From: Immundisolibacteraceae bacterium
GTDB lineage: Bacteria > Pseudomonadota > Gammaproteobacteria > Immundisolibacterales > Immundisolibacteraceae
Length of the DNA stretch: 12,443 bases
Direction: 5' to 3'
NCBI GenBank assembly: GCA_019090185.1
Contig: JAHRWJ010000173.1
Coordinates: 1-12,443, forward strand
The translations under genes were made by a program, and so were the position numbers. Below the pieces are notes generated by a model, which saw only the letters and a list, made by a program, of their open reading frames with translations, was not told the DNA's origin and did no database searches. How positions within the stretch are numbered: position 1 is the first letter of the stretch; the number at the start of each line of letters is the position of its first letter. This document shows positions 3,290 through 8,825 of this stretch, piece by piece.

Positions 3290-4453
3290 CTAGAGCGTAC
3301 GTACCGACAATACGCCATCTATGCCGCGAATTTTATCCAGCAATGCCTCCGGCAATTTACCGTCGGTATCCACCAAGGTATAAGCCAGGTCGCCCCGCGA
3401 TTTATTCAGCATATCGATAATATTCAGTCCGGCGTCTGCCAAATCGGTGGCAATCTGTCCGACCATATTAGGCACATTGGAATTAGCGACTGCCAACCGA
3501 AAACCTTCTCCACGGGGCAAATTAGCATTGGGAAAGTTCACCGAATTCTTAATGTTGCCCTGTTCCAGATAATCCCGTACCTGGTCAACCACCATCACCG
3601 CACAATTCTCTTCTGCTTCTCGAGTTGACGCGCCCAAATGGGGCAAGCAGATCACTCGTGGACAGTTTCGAAATTCTGCTGCTGGAAAATCACAAACATA
3701 GGCGTGCAGGTGATCTGACTCCAGCGCGGCAACGACCGCGCTATTGTTGACGATACCTTCACGAGCAAAATTGAGCACCGTGGCACCCTTTTTCAGCAAC
3801 CGAATTCGCTTTTCATCCAACAGATCACGGGTATGGTCGTTTAACGGCACATGAAAAGTCACCATGTCACTTTTGGCCATCAGCTCATCAACGCTAACAG
3901 CCTGAACAATTTCGGCAGGTAATTGCCAGGCACCTTCCACGGTTAAACCTGGGTCGAAACCAATCACTTTCATGCCCAAATCGAGGGCCACTTTGGCAAC
4001 CTGGCGACCGATTGCGCCCAAACCCACCACACCGAGCGTCCGACCTGGTAGTTCGTATCCAGCGAACTGTTTTTTAGCGGCCTCAACTTCTTTATTCAGT
4101 TGATCGCCTTCACTACTAAGGTTGCCAGTGTATTCCCAGCTCTGAATAAGGTTTCGAGCCGACAGCAACATTCCGGCGACCACCAATTCCTTTACCGCGT
4201 TGGCGTTGGCCCCGGGCGTATTGAAAACCGGAATACCTAAATCGCTAAACTTTTCTACTGGAATATTATTGACACCGGCACCAGCACGGCCAATGACTTT
4301 CAGATTTGACGGCACGGCCATGTCGTGCATTTTGGCGGACCGTAGCAGGATCACCTCGGCATTATCTGCCTCGGCCTCCAGGTCATAGCTTTCGGGATCA
4401 AGGCGCTGTAAACCGGCCGGCGAAATATTATTGAGGGTAAGAACTTTAAACAC
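3290..4453 (-). CDS. serA: D-3-phosphoglycerate dehydrogenase, short ACT-containing type
   Basis: Oxidises 3-phosphoglycerate to 3-phosphohydroxypyruvate with NAD+, the first step of serine synthesis; SerC encoded upstream does the next step. Domains: substrate-binding segment with GRAGAGVNNIP at 55-65, Rossmann NAD domain with GLGAIG at 144-149 and the acidic D167 after it, and the catalytic set R231 (NFAREGIV), E260 and H272 (LPHLGAST). An ACT domain occupies about 317-387 and suggests serine or other amino acid feedback. At 387 residues it is shorter than the 410-residue E. coli enzyme and resembles the short SerA type often paired with serC in Firmicutes and Bacteroidetes. The start is GTG at 4453 with GGAG five bases upstream. 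The TAG stop overlaps the ribosome binding site of pheA. Confidence 0.94.
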   Translation of the reverse strand: MFKVLTLNNISPAGLQRLDPESYDLEAEADNAEVILLRSAKMHDMAVPSNLKVIGRAGAGVNNIPVEKFSDLGIPVFNTPGANANAVKELVVAGMLLSARNLIQSWEYTGNLSSEGDQLNKEVEAAKKQFAGYELPGRTLGVVGLGAIGRQVAKVALDLGMKVIGFDPGLTVEGAWQLPAEIVQAVSVDELMAKSDMVTFHVPLNDHTRDLLDEKRIRLLKKGATVLNFAREGIVNNSAVVAALESDHLHAYVCDFPAAEFRNCPRVICLPHLGASTREAEENCAVMVVDQVRDYLEQGNIKNSVNFPNANLPRGEGFRLAVANSNVPNMVGQIATDLADAGLNIIDMLNKSRGDLAYTLVDTDGKLPEALLDKIRGIDGVLSVRTL

Positions 4454-4470
4454 ACTAACTCCATAACGAC

Positions 4471-4499
4471 TTAAAAACTTAACGAAAATTAAATTGCAA
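4471..4499 (-). promoter_or_regulatory. Possible weak promoter for serA-pheA-hisC-tyrA-aroA
   Basis: In the AT-rich gap between the Roadblock gene and serA, minus-strand TTGCAA (4499-4494, 4 of 6 matches to a -35 box) is 17 bases before TTTTAA (4476-4471, 3 of 6). Spacing is right but the -10 is poor, so this is only a candidate. It would let the biosynthetic genes be transcribed independently of the signalling cassette upstream. Confidence 0.2.
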
Positions 4500-4525
4500 C
4501 CTCAGCAGGGCTGCCGGATCTCAGC

Positions 4526-4891
4526 TTACAAATATTGGGCCAGTGAAAAAGCTGTACTGGTCGCTGATTCAAAAGCTAGATCCGCATCAATGCTACGCCG
4601 AGAGACCATTATCAGAGCAACGTCATCCGCAATAGAGATGATTAATACCTGACCCTGATTACCCACCAACCGAATTCGCTCAAGGCCGCCGCCAGAACTG
4701 TATCCCAGCAGCGTTTCAGCGAGCGCGGTCATTGAAGCACCCGCAGCACCGAGATAATCGAGACTATAGTTTGCTGGCAGGTTTGATTGAACAACAACTC
4801 CATCACGGCCAACGACCAGCGAACCAACGAGACCTGGATTATTACTGACTAAATCGTCCAGCAAGGTAGAAATTGAATCTAAATTTGCCAA
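4526..4891 (-). CDS. Roadblock/LC7 domain protein (MglB-like)
   Basis: A 121-residue single-domain protein of the Roadblock/LC7 superfamily, whose bacterial members (MglB and conservon CvnB proteins) bind Ras-like GTPases as dimers and in MglB act as GTPase-activating proteins. Evidence is the helix-strand pattern: LDDLVSNNPGLVGSLVVGRD at 11-30, the strand pair around DGVVVQS (30-36), a central helix at 47-64 that is rich in small residues, and strands LERIRLVGNQGQVLIISIAD (70-89) and VALIMVS (91-97). There is no signal peptide or membrane segment. The start is TTG at 4891, supported by AAGGG about eight bases ahead; the first internal ATG is residue 54 and would remove the fold. It follows the kinase-GTPase gene after 144 bases, so that GTPase is its likely partner (inference). 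The length suits one complete domain. Confidence 0.85.
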   Translation of the reverse strand: MANLDSISTLLDDLVSNNPGLVGSLVVGRDGVVVQSNLPANYSLDYLGAAGASMTALAETLLGYSSGGGLERIRLVGNQGQVLIISIADDVALIMVSRRSIDADLAFESATSTAFSLAQYL

Positions 4892-4942
4892 TCAAATGCC
4901 CTTTTAGCCAAAAAACCACTCTGCTCGAAAATCGCTCGACAA

Positions 4943-4948
4943 AGTTTA
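4943..4948 (-). promoter_or_regulatory. Candidate extended -10 element for the Roadblock gene
   Basis: Minus-strand TGGTAAACT gives a TGn extension plus TAAACT (4 of 6 matches to a -10 box), with a weak TTCAGC 17 bases upstream. Just downstream, TCGAGC occurs twice with an 11-base period (about 4924-4940), which could be an operator. This is the only promoter-like sequence in the 144-base gap and is weak on its own. Confidence 0.25.
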
Positions 4949-5003
4949 CCATTCGTCGATTTTAAGCTGAAAAAAAGTCCGGAAAATAATGCCTTCGCAC
5001 ACA

Positions 5004-5029
5004 ACAAACCGCCGAGGCCCAATCGGCAA
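5004..5029 (-). terminator. Weak intrinsic-terminator-like hairpin after the kinase-GTPase gene
   Basis: Minus-strand GCCGA and TCGGC (5027-5023 and 5015-5011) can pair around a seven-base loop, with two further G-U pairs possible, followed by GGTTTGTTG instead of a clean T tract. It lies 9 bases past the kinase-GTPase stop codon. It may attenuate read-through to the Roadblock gene rather than stop it. Confidence 0.25.
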
Positions 5030-5035
5030 TGTCAT

Positions 5036-6589
5036 TCAGGAAGAGACCGCCACCGGACTATTTGCGAAAAACAGCGCTTGAATCAGCACCTTTAAGTCCT
5101 TAGCGGAGCGGGCATCGACATCAAATACCGGCGGTATCACCGCCCTGTTCAAACAGTAGGTAAACAGCCACTGCTGAAAGTAATCAATTCTTGGCTGCAG
5201 CGCTTTATCCATATGGGTAACACCAATCACGAGCCGATTTGCCGCTAGAAGTTCCGAGTACTGCTCCAACATTCGCTCTAATTCGACCAGGCTATCCGGT
5301 TGGCGGTTATCAATTAACACCACCACACCAAACGCTCCAACTTTTAACAGATCGCCCATAAATTTAAATTGATGCGCCCCTGGGGTACCATAAAGATGAA
5401 TACGCTCATTTGAACCCAAATCCATATAGGCATAATCCTGAGCGACGGTCGATGCTCTGGTTACACGGCCACCTAAGGCACCCGGCCAAAGCTCTGTGGT
5501 CATAGCCGGCATATCGCCCAGTACCGATACAGCGGTGGTTTTCCCACCGCCAGAGCTGCCGCAAAATAGAAGCTTGTACTCTTCCTGTGGTCGAGACACC
5601 TTCGACTCAAGGCCTGAGACGGTAATATCTGAGGCAGTGATATCTGTCTCCGATGCGCCAGCCTGGAAGCGCTTACCAACATCAGCAGTCGCTATTGGTT
5701 TTTCACCCAGCGCAACCAACACCTCATCTGCTGATTGAGGCCGCTCAGCCGCAACCACGGTCAACATCCAGTCAACCACTCGCAAAAACTCGGGACTGGC
5801 GTAGCCTGCAGCAACCTTTGAGACCGGTACCAATGGATCGCTCTCACCGCGGGAAAACGCATTCGCACGATTATAGGCTGATGTCGGCGCCTTCTTGACG
5901 AAGCAGCGATAGACGGTTGCTCCGAGGGCATAGAGGTCAGACCAGGGCCCCAGCGCGGCCTGGTGACCATATTGTTCTATCGAGGCATAGGCCGGCGTAA
6001 GCACATCAGAGGTTTTACGCACCTCATCACCCATTGCAAAGCAGGCTGCCCCAAAATCAAGTAACACCGGAGTCCCGCTACGAGTCAAAAAAATATTGCC
6101 CGGTTTGATATCCCGATGCAGATAACTTTTCTGATGAATGGTGTTTAAACCACTAAGCACCGGCACCAGCCAGGCGCGTATTTGCGCTTCTACCATCGGC
6201 TGTTCTTTGGTCTTAATAATCCGATCAAGATCCCGACCAGCCTGATACTCCATCACAAAATAAGCAGTTCCATTTTCATGGAAATAGTTCAATACCTTAA
6301 CTATGTTGGGGTGCCGAAACTGCGCCAGGATCTGCGCCTCGGTAACAAACCGATCCATTCCCCATTGATAAAAGCGCTCATGCTCTGGCCCGCGCAAACC
6401 CACTTGCTTGCCACTGGTACGTGCTGCAATATCTTTTGGCAAATACTCTTTAATGGCAACATCAATACCACGGTCCAGGTCACGGGCACGATAAGTGATA
6501 CCAAAACTGCCAGCACCGAGCTCAGAAATCAGCTCATAACGCGCTATCTGCGTACCGGGGGGCAATCCACTAATCGAAATAGATGCCAT
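5036..6589 (-). CDS. Hanks-type Ser/Thr protein kinase fused to a Ras-like small GTPase
   Basis: A 517-residue soluble fusion. Residues 18-295 are a eukaryotic-type kinase with all active-site elements: glycine loop GAGSFG (25-30), VAIKEY with K47, helix-C E84, catalytic loop HRDIKPGN (158-165, D160), DFG (178-180), the YASIEQY activation-segment end (201-207), D218 and R283. After a Thr/Ser-rich linker (about 296-336), residues 337-508 are a small GTPase of the COG2229 type: P-loop GSSGGGKT (344-351), switch I near T381, GTPGAH (401-406), THMD (458-461) and DARSA (492-496). In this GTPase family position 405 is usually Gln; here it is Ala, and the G4 Lys is His. No membrane or extracellular sensor domain is present. 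It starts two bases after the upstream pseudo-receiver gene stops, so the two are co-translated. Substrate and process are unknown; the downstream Roadblock protein is the likely GTPase regulator. Confidence 0.93.
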   Translation of the reverse strand: MASISISGLPPGTQIARYELISELGAGSFGITYRARDLDRGIDVAIKEYLPKDIAARTSGKQVGLRGPEHERFYQWGMDRFVTEAQILAQFRHPNIVKVLNYFHENGTAYFVMEYQAGRDLDRIIKTKEQPMVEAQIRAWLVPVLSGLNTIHQKSYLHRDIKPGNIFLTRSGTPVLLDFGAACFAMGDEVRKTSDVLTPAYASIEQYGHQAALGPWSDLYALGATVYRCFVKKAPTSAYNRANAFSRGESDPLVPVSKVAAGYASPEFLRVVDWMLTVVAAERPQSADEVLVALGEKPIATADVGKRFQAGASETDITASDITVSGLESKVSRPQEEYKLLFCGSSGGGKTTAVSVLGDMPAMTTELWPGALGGRVTRASTVAQDYAYMDLGSNERIHLYGTPGAHQFKFMGDLLKVGAFGVVVLIDNRQPDSLVELERMLEQYSELLAANRLVIGVTHMDKALQPRIDYFQQWLFTYCLNRAVIPPVFDVDARSAKDLKVLIQALFFANSPVAVSS

Positions 6590-6591
6590 CT

Positions 6592-7683
6592 TTAACCCAA
6601 ATTCCTACCGATATGTTCAACAACTCTTTGCATCCCTGATCCACTATCGACCTGAGCGCCACGATTCGCCAACAGATAATCGTCATCACGATGCGCGACC
6701 CCCGCCAGCCCAATTGTCTTGGCCGCATAATAAAAAGTAAACACATCCGCCGGAGCGATGGCCAGGGCATCGGCAACAAACACCGGCGGCATCGGCTCAC
6801 GCACCCAAAAAGCGGCAATACGAACCGCATGGGGGATCACCATTAAGCGGGTAAAATTTGGCCAGCAGCGCAAATAAAAACGTGTGTTCGCATCCGTACC
6901 CTCTGGAAGACGACCCCGAGAAGTCCAAACCGCTAACTTCCACAACAGCACTTCTAGCGGCAGGATCTCTTTATACTGCTCTAAACGCGCCATCGCAGAT
7001 GTCTGTTCCGCAGCAGTTAAACCCTGTACCACAAACTGACCCGCCAGACTCGGTTCACGGGCCCAGGCCAACAGTTGATCTGCGTTCACGGAGACAGCGA
7101 CCAACGGCTCCCGCGGCAACACCAACAGCTCGCCATGGCCAGCCATTCGCAGCGCGACCGCACGACCAGTTTTGCAGGACCGATCTATTGCCTCCAGCAA
7201 TCCATTTAACAGGGTCTCGGAGCTATCAAAACTACGGATGTTAAGGGTGGCGTCCTCTTCCCGTCGACCAGTTGCCTGCGCCAGCCGAGCCGGGTCCAAG
7301 ACCATATCTGCACCGTGCCGACTGCCCGTCTGCCGTTTTTTTTTCGAGCGGCTTTTGCGCCGCTGAGCAACCTGGTTTCTAGCCCATGAAATCGCTTCGA
7401 GCAGCGCGACTTCCATGATCGGTTTTGGCACCCAGATCACGTCATCAATGTCCGGACGATGGCGCGATAACACAATGGTAGGCAAATCTGGATAATGCGC
7501 TCTAAACTCACTCCAGGCGCTATCGCTGGCATCGACATCGGCGATGAACGCCTCAGCACTCTCGGGCTCTACGACCTGACAATGCTCGTCAGCAATTTCC
7601 ATCAAAAACGAGCTCAACCGCCGCAGGCCCCGAGAACTAAGCCCAACAATCGCCAGCGCTACTGGCTGCTTAGATCCGCTCAA
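6592..7683 (-). CDS. Pseudo-receiver protein with an unidentified C-terminal domain
   Basis: I do not recognise this 363-residue protein as a named family. Residues 7-105 follow the response-regulator receiver pattern: strand VALAIVGLSS, possible acceptors D49/D51 in FIADVD, strand TIVLS (69-73) and VPKPI (85-89), the Lys-cis-Pro typical of receivers. The acidic pair after the first strand is absent (VGLSSRG), so Mg2+-dependent phosphorylation is doubtful. A basic linker RRKSRSKKKR (108-117) follows, then a region from about 150 to 363 that includes LLWKLAVWTSRGRLP (246-260), RCWPNFTRL (272-280) and a helical tail. The last part could be winged-helix-like, but this is a guess. No signal peptide or membrane segment. 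The start is TTG at 7683 with GGAG five bases ahead. It ends two bases before the kinase-GTPase start, so it probably acts with that protein. Confidence 0.8.
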   Translation of the reverse strand: MSGSKQPVALAIVGLSSRGLRRLSSFLMEIADEHCQVVEPESAEAFIADVDASDSAWSEFRAHYPDLPTIVLSRHRPDIDDVIWVPKPIMEVALLEAISWARNQVAQRRKSRSKKKRQTGSRHGADMVLDPARLAQATGRREEDATLNIRSFDSSETLLNGLLEAIDRSCKTGRAVALRMAGHGELLVLPREPLVAVSVNADQLLAWAREPSLAGQFVVQGLTAAEQTSAMARLEQYKEILPLEVLLWKLAVWTSRGRLPEGTDANTRFYLRCWPNFTRLMVIPHAVRIAAFWVREPMPPVFVADALAIAPADVFTFYYAAKTIGLAGVAHRDDDYLLANRGAQVDSGSGMQRVVEHIGRNLG

Positions 7684-7742
7684 CTGCTCTCCACGACGAC
7701 ACCTTTGTCAAAACGCACTCCAACGGCTAACTGTTTTTTGCT

Positions 7743-8825
7743 TTATCCATGACGGCTAGAAAAATCGGCCATAAAACTCACCAGTGCCGCGATACCTTCA
7801 TCCGGCATTGCGTTATAAATACTGGCTCTCATGCCACCGACCGAGCGATGACCTTTAAGGGTCACCAAACCTGCGGCCCCGGCTTCCTGCAAAAACAAAC
7901 CATCTAATTCAGCATTAGCCAGCGTAAAAGGCACATTCATCCTTGACCGACTCGCCTGCTCGGTTGGGCAGTCATAAAAACCATTGCCATCAATCATTTT
8001 ATAAAGCGTTTCTGATTGACGAACATTACGCGCCTCTATCTGGGCCAGACCACCTTCGGACAACAACTTTCTAAACACCAATCCAGCGACATAAACGCCA
8101 AAGGTTGGCGGCGTGTTGTAGCAGGAGTCGTTATCTGCATGGGGCTGATAATCGAACATGGTCGGCGTACCCGGTAATACGGTTCCGATCAGATCATCAC
8201 GAACAATTACGATGGTGACGCCCGCTGGGCCAATATTTTTCTGCGCGCCCGCGTAGATCAAACCATATTTCGATACATCGATTGGTTTAGAGAGAATATT
8301 GCTAGAGGCATCACAAACCAGCGGCACATCGCCAGATTCCGGTAAATAGTGGAACTCGGTACCGAAAATAGTGTTATTGCTGGTGAAATGCAGATAAGCA
8401 GCCTGCGGATCGAGCTGTAATTCCTGCTGAGTAGGCACCCGGCTAAAATTCACATCCGCACTGCCGCCGGCAACGTTTACTTCACAGTATTTCTTAGCTT
8501 CGGCAATGGCCTTTTTCGACCAGCTGCCGGTATTAATATAGTCGGCATTGGTTTTATCCTTGAGCAGATTCATCGGCACCATGCTGAACTGGGCACTGGC
8601 ACCGCCCTGCAAAAATAGCACTTTGTAATTGTTCGGAATCGCCAGCAATTCGCGCAGATCCGCCTCTGTCTGCTCCAATATCGACACGAAAGCTTTGCCG
8701 CGGTGACTCATCTCCATCACCGACATGCCTTCACCCTGCCAATCCAGCATCTCATCACGCACCTGCTCAAGCACAGATTGGGGTAACGCTGCGGGACCCG
8801 CACTAAAATTAAAAACTCGTGACAT
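7743..8825 (-). CDS. serC: Phosphoserine aminotransferase
   Basis: PLP enzyme that makes O-phosphoserine from 3-phosphohydroxypyruvate and glutamate (second step of serine synthesis). In many bacteria it also acts on the analogous intermediate of pyridoxal phosphate synthesis. The 360-residue length is that of the family. Motifs: NFSAGPAALP at 6-15, the substrate-binding MSHRGK at 39-44 (H41, R42), GGASAQF at 74-80, D172 contacting the PLP ring nitrogen, AGAQKNIGPAG at 192-202 with K196 as Schiff-base lysine, and GHRSVGGMRAS near 324-334 with phosphate/carboxylate-binding arginines. ATG 8825 has GGAG eight bases upstream. The gap to gyrA is 59 bases with no terminator, as is the gap to the pseudo-receiver gene downstream. 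Its usual partner serA is displaced by the intervening three-gene cassette. Confidence 0.97.
   Translation of the reverse strand: MSRVFNFSAGPAALPQSVLEQVRDEMLDWQGEGMSVMEMSHRGKAFVSILEQTEADLRELLAIPNNYKVLFLQGGASAQFSMVPMNLLKDKTNADYINTGSWSKKAIAEAKKYCEVNVAGGSADVNFSRVPTQQELQLDPQAAYLHFTSNNTIFGTEFHYLPESGDVPLVCDASSNILSKPIDVSKYGLIYAGAQKNIGPAGVTIVIVRDDLIGTVLPGTPTMFDYQPHADNDSCYNTPPTFGVYVAGLVFRKLLSEGGLAQIEARNVRQSETLYKMIDGNGFYDCPTEQASRSRMNVPFTLANAELDGLFLQEAGAAGLVTLKGHRSVGGMRASIYNAMPDEGIAALVSFMADFSSRHG

What the first reader, a model, noticed from the sequence alone, without database searches (positions are those of the whole stretch)
4526..7683. Three-gene kinase / GTPase / Roadblock switch inserted in a housekeeping operon
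Seen: a pseudo-receiver gene, a Hanks kinase-small GTPase fusion and a Roadblock/LC7 gene lie in a row between serC and serA, with the first two separated by two bases. Known: Roadblock proteins regulate Ras-like GTPases in MglA/MglB polarity systems and accompany GTPases in Streptomyces conservons. Inference: these three form one switch in which kinase signalling and GTP state are joined in one polypeptide, with the Roadblock protein as regulator and the pseudo-receiver as adaptor or output. I know of no described system with exactly this composition.
Basis: partly seen in the sequence, partly recalled or inferred. Interest (0 to 1): 0.85.

Follow-up and report, generated by a model that had tools for sequence, protein, structure and literature searches.

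The report
Kinase-fused bacterial Ras-type switch operon
Three neighbouring bacterial genes encode a known kind of Ras-like signalling switch in which, unusually, the switch protein is welded to a protein kinase and lacks the residue such switches normally use to turn themselves off.

Summary
Between serC and serA lie, on one strand, a receiver-like protein (6592-7683), a Hanks kinase fused to a Ras-like GTPase (5036-6589) and a Roadblock protein (4526-4891). The underlying trio is not new: PMC4316618 describes "Group 3 MglA" systems of beta/gamma-Proteobacteria, namely a receiver-like/winged-helix-like protein, MglA and MglB. In 369 gammaproteobacterial genomes all three families occur in 57; 53 of 97 GTPase hits have the receiver-like gene upstream and Roadblock downstream. 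The kinase fusion is the new part: seen in 6 of 369 genomes (lower bound), probably one origin, and not met in the listings shown by nine paper searches. The fused kinase stays intact (catalytic Asp 109 of 109) while the GTPase erodes repeatedly: P-loop plus Gln in 53 of 109 fused entries against 39 of 39 complete unfused ones. The window lineage keeps the P-loop, lacks the Gln, and is under purifying selection. serC and serA adjoin without the module in five other genomes. Best reading: a Roadblock-bound nucleotide domain gates the kinase; inferred, not shown. Interpretation partly supported; a new variant of a known kind.

The parts
6592..7683 (-). receiver-like + winged-helix-like protein (363 aa), the Group 3 'protein of unknown function'
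7345..7671 (-). pseudo-receiver domain, residues 5-113; keeps acceptor-position Asp49, Ser73 and Lys87 but has Gly14-Leu15 where receivers carry the acidic pair (canonical residues recalled, not from a call)
   Evidence: model strands; residues; alignment with 8svz and EvgA; Asp49 and Lys87 at least 90% conserved
6694..7212 (-). C-terminal region, residues 158-330: alpha/beta part then a mostly helical part; invariant WPN (274-276)
   Evidence: the winged-helix assignment is from PMC4316618, not shown here
5036..6589 (-). Hanks Ser/Thr kinase fused to an MglA-type GTPase (517 aa)
5726..6538 (-). kinase domain, residues 18-288; VAIK, HRD (6110-6118) and DFG (6050-6058) present
5054..5590 (-). 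GTPase domain, residues 334-512: P-loop 5534-5560, G3 GTPGA 5375-5389 (Gln absent), G4 THMD 5207-5218, G5 DAR 5108-5116
4526..4891 (-). Roadblock/LC7 (MglB-type) protein, 121 aa; Asp-Gly pair at 4799-4804
   Evidence: Robl_LC7 7.3e-10; Asp30-Gly31 invariant in 24 of 24 aligned; family profile's nearest solved chains 7f8m 3e-28, CvnB5 1e-15, MglB 9e-5
3290..4453 (-). serA, downstream flank of the insertion
7743..8825 (-). serC, upstream flank of the insertion

Best explanation
A Group 3 MglA/MglB-type module in which the MglA-type GTPase has been fused behind a Hanks Ser/Thr kinase. Shown: composition, conserved order, intact kinase residues, a P-loop without the catalytic Gln, purifying selection on the GTPase domain, retention of Roadblock in the genus. 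Inferred: the GTPase domain binds nucleotide but turns it over slowly or not at all alone; a Roadblock dimer binds it and senses or completes its state; that complex gates the kinase on the same chain; the kinase, or the complex, acts through the receiver-like/winged-helix-like protein encoded two bases upstream, which is the likely output (probably transcriptional). The kinase thus replaces free GTPase as the effector arm, so the pressure to keep GTP hydrolysis is relaxed and it was lost repeatedly.
For: Order receiver-like > GTPase > Roadblock: 53 of 97 GTPase hits in 369 genomes. Single chains elsewhere join receiver-like + GTPase (L076) and GTPase + a Roadblock-like domain (L077, Pfam 0.021, below cut-off), so the parts probably touch. 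Kinase HRD Asp and DFG Asp 109 of 109, VAIK Lys 107 with the other 2 truncated there. GTPase P-loop plus Gln: 53 of 109 fused entries, 22 P-loop only, 34 neither; unfused 39 of 39 complete. At least 8 changes between intact and not intact on the kinase tree (70 scored rows). Window against G003: dN/dS 0.054 for the GTPase part, 0.046 for the kinase. All 9 rows of the window clade lack the Gln (A, A, S, L, S, A, E, E, A). Roadblock kept in all four genomes held of the genus.
Against: No binding, kinase or GTPase activity was measured and no complex was modelled. dS is 1.0-1.5, so dN/dS is rough, and the comparison with G002 is mostly saturated. Fused entries were picked by similarity to the window protein and include at least three near-copy pairs. 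G007 keeps Roadblock beside a GTPase domain without a P-loop, so keeping Roadblock does not prove nucleotide sensing. 24 of 97 GTPase hits have no Roadblock within 3 kb and 52 of 122 receiver-like hits (some of them halves of one gene) have no GTPase within 3 kb. No target of the kinase is known.
Confidence: 0.5

Rival explanations
1. Spatial recruitment: as in Myxococcus MglA/MglB, the GTPase-Roadblock pair marks a cell pole or pilus machine and simply carries the kinase there; the kinase is not gated by nucleotide.
For: MglA/MglB and the receiver protein RomR set polarity in Myxococcus (starts of abstracts; PMC4316618 section 18). An orphan-mglB mutation in Snodgrassella, which has a Group 3 mgl locus, was tied to gut colonisation and spreading on soft agar (PMC11112851 passages).
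Against: Losing the catalytic Gln would be odd for a cycling polarity switch; the other named genes of the window are housekeeping, none of motility.
Confidence: 0.2
2. Classical switch: the fused GTPase cycles, Roadblock is its GAP, kinase signals are joined to GTP state.
For: P-loop, G2 Thr, DAR motif and the Roadblock Asp-Gly pair are present; 53 of 109 fused entries do keep the Gln, so this may be right for them.
Against: The window clade lacks the Gln in 9 of 9 rows.
Confidence: 0.15
3. Relic: the GTPase domain is an inert spacer or dimerisation module and Roadblock a leftover; only kinase and receiver-like protein matter.
For: Paralogues whose GTPase part is barely or not recognisable (L062, L064, L066) or degenerate (L065), with no Roadblock found nearby in L065 and L066 where the sequence goes on; G141 has the fusion but no Roadblock hit in its genome.
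Against: GTPase dN/dS about as low as the kinase's; Roadblock kept in the four genus members.
Confidence: 0.1
4. A regulator of serine or aromatic amino-acid synthesis, or of gyrA, because it sits in that operon.
For: Same strand, gaps of 59, 2, 144 and 72 bases, same place in five genomes.
Against: Homologous fused modules elsewhere are on other contigs than serC (G015, G141, G347, G374, G375); the serC-serA junction is intact without it in five genomes.
Confidence: 0.05

Closest known systems
Group 3 MglA systems (Wuichet and Sogaard-Andersen 2014, PMC4316618; sections 8, 11-15, 18 and 20 read)
   Same: Receiver-like N-terminus plus winged-helix-like C-terminus protein, MglA, one or two MglB; beta/gamma-Proteobacteria; G4 often without Lys; DAR in G5; Asp-Gly in MglB; conserved neighbourhood
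   Different: Here the GTPase is fused to a Hanks kinase and lacks the Gln of GTPGQ; that paper left proteins over 240 aa out of its analysis
Actinobacterial conservons (Cvn/Mfp)
   Same: A kinase-type protein, Roadblock, small GTPase and one further protein act as a unit
   Different: The conservon kinase is a separate histidine kinase; here a Ser/Thr kinase in one chain with the GTPase; no CvnC relative was looked for
MglA/MglB/RomR polarity module of Myxococcus
   Same: Ras-like GTPase, Roadblock partner, receiver-domain protein
   Different: Group 1 MglA with intrinsic Arg and the Gln; no kinase fusion; genes not next to RomR
PpkA-type Hanks kinases (solved 5x1r, 5hnv)
   Different: Partner domains and context; the type VI secretion context of PpkA is recalled and not seen here

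Membership tests
Group 3 MglA system | conserved trio: receiver-like/wHTH-like protein, MglA, one or two MglB | tested here: met
   the window has one MglB-type gene
Group 3 MglA system | first protein: receiver-like N-terminus | tested here: met
Group 3 MglA system | first protein: winged-helix-like C-terminus | tested here: inconclusive
   mostly helical region with a strand in the model; the structure list covers residues 4-117 only
Group 3 MglA system | G3 motif GTPGQ | tested here: not met
   window GTPGA; all 9 rows of its clade lack the Gln
Group 3 MglA system | G4 often lacking Lys, and G5 DAR | tested here: met
   THMD and DAR
Group 3 MglA system | small single-domain GTPase (150-240 aa, the size limit used in PMC4316618) | tested here: not met
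   517-aa kinase fusion
Group 3 MglA system | Asp-Gly pair in the coupled MglB | tested here: met
   24 of 24 aligned
Group 3 MglA system | GTPase groups with named Group 3 GTPases in a tree | tested here: inconclusive
   fused rows nest among unfused ones with the trio, but no named Group 1-5 references were in the tree
MglB-type Roadblock | Robl_LC7 domain over cut-off, coupled to a GTPase | tested here: met
MglB-type Roadblock | GAP activity on its GTPase | not testable with these tools
   needs biochemistry
Hanks Ser/Thr kinase | VAIK Lys, HRD Asp, DFG Asp | tested here: met
Phosphorylatable receiver | acidic pair, acceptor Asp, Ser/Thr, Lys (definition recalled) | tested here: not met
   Asp49, Ser73, Lys87 present, acidic pair absent in the window protein
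Conservon | histidine kinase CvnA beside Roadblock and GTPase | tested here: not met
   the other eight minus-strand genes of the window are named housekeeping enzymes

The most novel reading that the evidence does not exclude
Fusion to a kinase turned a Ras-like switch into a pseudo-GTPase regulatory subunit many times over: in the window lineage a GTP-loaded, non-cycling domain clamped by Roadblock holds the kinase in a GTP- or partner-dependent state, a bacterial counterpart of a kinase governed by an attached pseudo-GTPase.
Probability: 0.3. Interest if true: 0.75.

Novelty: new variant of a known kind. Interest (0 to 1): 0.55.

Why it matters
For Group 3 MglA systems I found no known input or output in the papers seen. 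The fusion names a biochemical output (phosphorylation) and lets the GTPase-Roadblock interaction be read as kinase activity. The repeated loss of GTPase catalysis with the kinase preserved is a natural experiment on which function selection keeps, and gives a series (intact, Gln-less, P-loop-less) for testing how a GTPase domain regulates a kinase in cis.

Tried and rejected
Rejected: 'no described system with this composition' (Group 3 MglA systems are described). Rejected: an RNA structure in the 144-bp gap before the Roadblock gene (fold z 0.86, 159 of 200 shuffles fold at least as well); promoter-like sites 3 against 5.8 expected; terminator-like sites 12 against 6.7 expected, none followed up. 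Rejected: an anti-phage defence reading; the PADLOC matches shown (25 of 35) are to the kinase part, none for the other two proteins. Led nowhere: the BFVD search of the fusion listed mostly kinases; the 50 PDB rows shown for the fusion are kinases and those for the receiver-like protein lie on its receiver part, so the GTPase fold and the C-terminal region were not tested by structure; Pfam at E 10 gave no PATAN match and a helix-turn-helix match (HTH_26, 0.29) for 1 of 30 members. A PATAN-like topology of residues 158-221 is my impression from the strand order and is not tested.

Single origin of the fusion: 38 fused and 39 unfused GTPases split at one branch, 79/100, 78% of bootstrap trees. 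With four long rows dropped (two fused, two unfused) the split is lost (two changes; one change in only 18% of bootstrap trees), because one long unfused row, L077, falls inside a 99/99 group with all 36 fused rows; holding the fused rows together gives a higher likelihood, AU p 0.653. So one origin is likely, not proven. On the kinase tree the 12 unfused kinases form one starred group nested among fused ones and the fused label needs 2 changes (midpoint root).

Rows dropped: the 'unfused' fragment L055 is a piece of a fused gene cut by a contig end and is the one non-intact entry of the 40 printed; it was left out of the 39. P0094 was left out of the fused set. In one search, 67 of the 109 fused entries were used, thinned by hand, and three remnant paralogues were scored not intact by me. 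Motif counts use strict patterns (for example GKRS or GKRT is scored as no P-loop). Class-wide counts are lower bounds: only up to 5, 9 and 4 candidates per genome were scored.
Full report
OBSERVATION. The minus strand carries, in transcription order, serC (8825-7743), a 363-aa ORF (7683-6592), a 517-aa ORF (6589-5036), a 121-aa ORF (4891-4526) and serA (4453-3290) (flank names). Two bases separate the first two ORFs of the trio, 144 the second and third. Pfam calls Pkinase (1.2e-40) in the 517-aa protein and Robl_LC7 (7.3e-10) in the last, and no family over its cut-off in the first. The window is a contig of a 60.7%-complete assembly; the nearest named records are MAGs labelled Immundisolibacteraceae and Gammaproteobacteria.

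CONSERVATION OF THE TRIO. In 56 related genomes Roadblock is found in 11, and in all 11 one Roadblock lies downstream of the GTPase, 2 to 924 bases away (G016 has a further lone one). In 369 genomes of the class (E<=1e-6, E<=1e-3, E<=1e-8) the receiver-like family is in 74, Roadblock in 71, the GTPase in 66, all three in 57. Of 97 GTPase places, 53 have the receiver-like gene upstream and Roadblock downstream within 3 kb on the same strand and nothing else of the kind; 14 have only Roadblock downstream, 7 only the receiver-like gene upstream, 16 neither, 7 other patterns. 24 of 97 have no Roadblock within 3 kb; 52 of 122 receiver-like hits have no GTPase hit within 3 kb (some hits are halves of one gene and some contigs end).

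THE KINASE FUSION. In those 369 genomes the full-length fusion is in five (G000, G015, G141, G219, G347), plus G001 where a contig end cuts it: 6 of 369, a lower bound. Also in G002, G003, G007, G374 and G375. Of the 100 best protein hits to the window fusion, 99 (all but P0094, left out) gave a GTPase-profile stretch of over 120 residues at a loose threshold. On the GTPase tree fused rows form one side of a branch in the first build (79/100); details for and against are under Tried and rejected.

WHAT HAPPENS TO THE GTPASE. By strict motif patterns, unfused GTPases keep P-loop and Gln in 39 of 39 complete entries; fused entries in 53 of 109, with 22 P-loop only and 34 neither. Kinase residues in the same 109: HRD Asp and DFG Asp 109, VAIK Lys 107 with 2 truncated. 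On a kinase-domain tree the intact/not-intact state needs at least 8 changes over 70 scored rows. The window clade (9 rows) has P-loop and G5 Arg, never the Gln. Window against G003: dN/dS 0.054 (GTPase part), 0.046 (kinase), 0.042 (Roadblock), 0.115 (160 codons of the receiver-like gene), 0.023 (serA), 0.341 (27 linker codons), dS 1.0-1.5; against G002 mostly saturated. So the Gln-less domain looks maintained, not decaying. Roadblock is present next to the Gln-less fusions of G000-G003 and the Gln-containing ones of G015, G219, G347 and G375. It was not found near the degenerate ones of G141, G007:C75 and G002:C4; for G374 only 0.9 kb of sequence follows, and for the Gln-containing G002:C99 and two paralogues the contig ends. 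It is present in G007 beside a P-loop-less one.

POSITION. serC and serA adjoin without the trio in G004, G005, G006 (same family), G141 and G374 (another order); the trio fills the junction in G000-G003 (G001 and G003 across contig ends) and G007. So it is an insertion in an old operon, and the place is not shared by the other fused modules looked at.

WHAT IS KNOWN. PMC4316618 (sections 8, 11-15, 18, 20 read; passages) describes Group 3 MglA systems: a protein with receiver-like and winged-helix-like ends (by Phyre2), MglA, one or two MglB, almost only in beta/gamma-Proteobacteria. It counts 488 MglA-clade sequences of which 449 are small and analyses the latter; no Ser/Thr kinase fusion is mentioned in what I read. 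PMC11112851 (passages) reports a colonisation-linked mutation in an orphan MglB of Snodgrassella, which has a Group 3 mgl locus. Nine searches showed no title or abstract start on a kinase-MglA fusion; six of them matched more papers than were listed (for example 1,618 matched, 12 listed), and the library holds open-licence papers only. PMC1262709 on Ser/Thr kinase architectures was searched for GTPase terms and gave only host GTPases (passages).

MECHANISM. What the sequence shows: an active-looking kinase tied to a Ras-like domain that can probably bind nucleotide but lacks the usual catalytic Gln, beside its Roadblock partner and a receiver-like probable output protein. What I infer: Roadblock binding to the domain gates the kinase, and the receiver-like protein is output. 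Single chains elsewhere, receiver-like + GTPase (L076) and GTPase + Roadblock-like (L077, Pfam 0.021, below cut-off), support contacts between the parts. Whether the Gln loss means no hydrolysis, or hydrolysis completed by Roadblock, is open.

VERDICT. The thing is real and conserved, and its genes could be co-transcribed (same strand, short gaps; not tested). As a trio it belongs with a described kind; as a kinase fusion with a repeatedly eroded GTPase it is a new variant. It fails two features of Group 3 (single-domain GTPase, GTPGQ), so I do not file the fusion itself as a Group 3 MglA, only as derived from, and working with the parts of, such a system.

Noticed in passing
L082 (G108) 4500-7779, L083 (G323) 4241-7486, L084 (G153) 4074-7320: The receiver-like gene, a 213-214-aa second MglB-like gene and Roadblock flank a different protein where the GTPase usually sits: a protoglobin (2.3e-20) in G108, one that looks alike by eye in G323, and a phosphonate-binding-type protein (1.3e-21) in G153. 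The slot may be swappable.
   Followed up: partly
G000:C10 (L062), G003:C338 (L064), G002:C4 (L066), G007:C75 (L065): Paralogous pairs: receiver-like protein (three of four lack the receiver part) plus a kinase whose C-terminus is a degenerate, barely recognisable or absent GTPase; no Roadblock found near L065 and L066, contig ends at L062 and L064.
   Followed up: partly
L076:5143-6678, L077:2367-3671: Single chains joining receiver-like protein + GTPase, and GTPase + Roadblock-like domain.
   Followed up: partly
L050:3082-3714, L071:5677-6351, L082:5625-6266, L084:5236-5877: A second, 210-224-aa MglB-like gene downstream of the GTPase or receiver-like gene; three of the four were scanned and give weak Robl_LC7 (0.04-0.22), one also weak MarR_2 (0.016); no such gene in the window.
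   Followed up: partly
window 3290-4453: SerA of 387 aa scores well under the NCBIfam phosphoglycerate dehydrogenase cut-offs (243 of 454 bits and 196 of 404).
   Followed up: no
P0155, P0164, P0166 (Frankia-group proteins): Actinobacterial proteins carry the C-terminal region of the receiver-like protein without the receiver.
   Followed up: no
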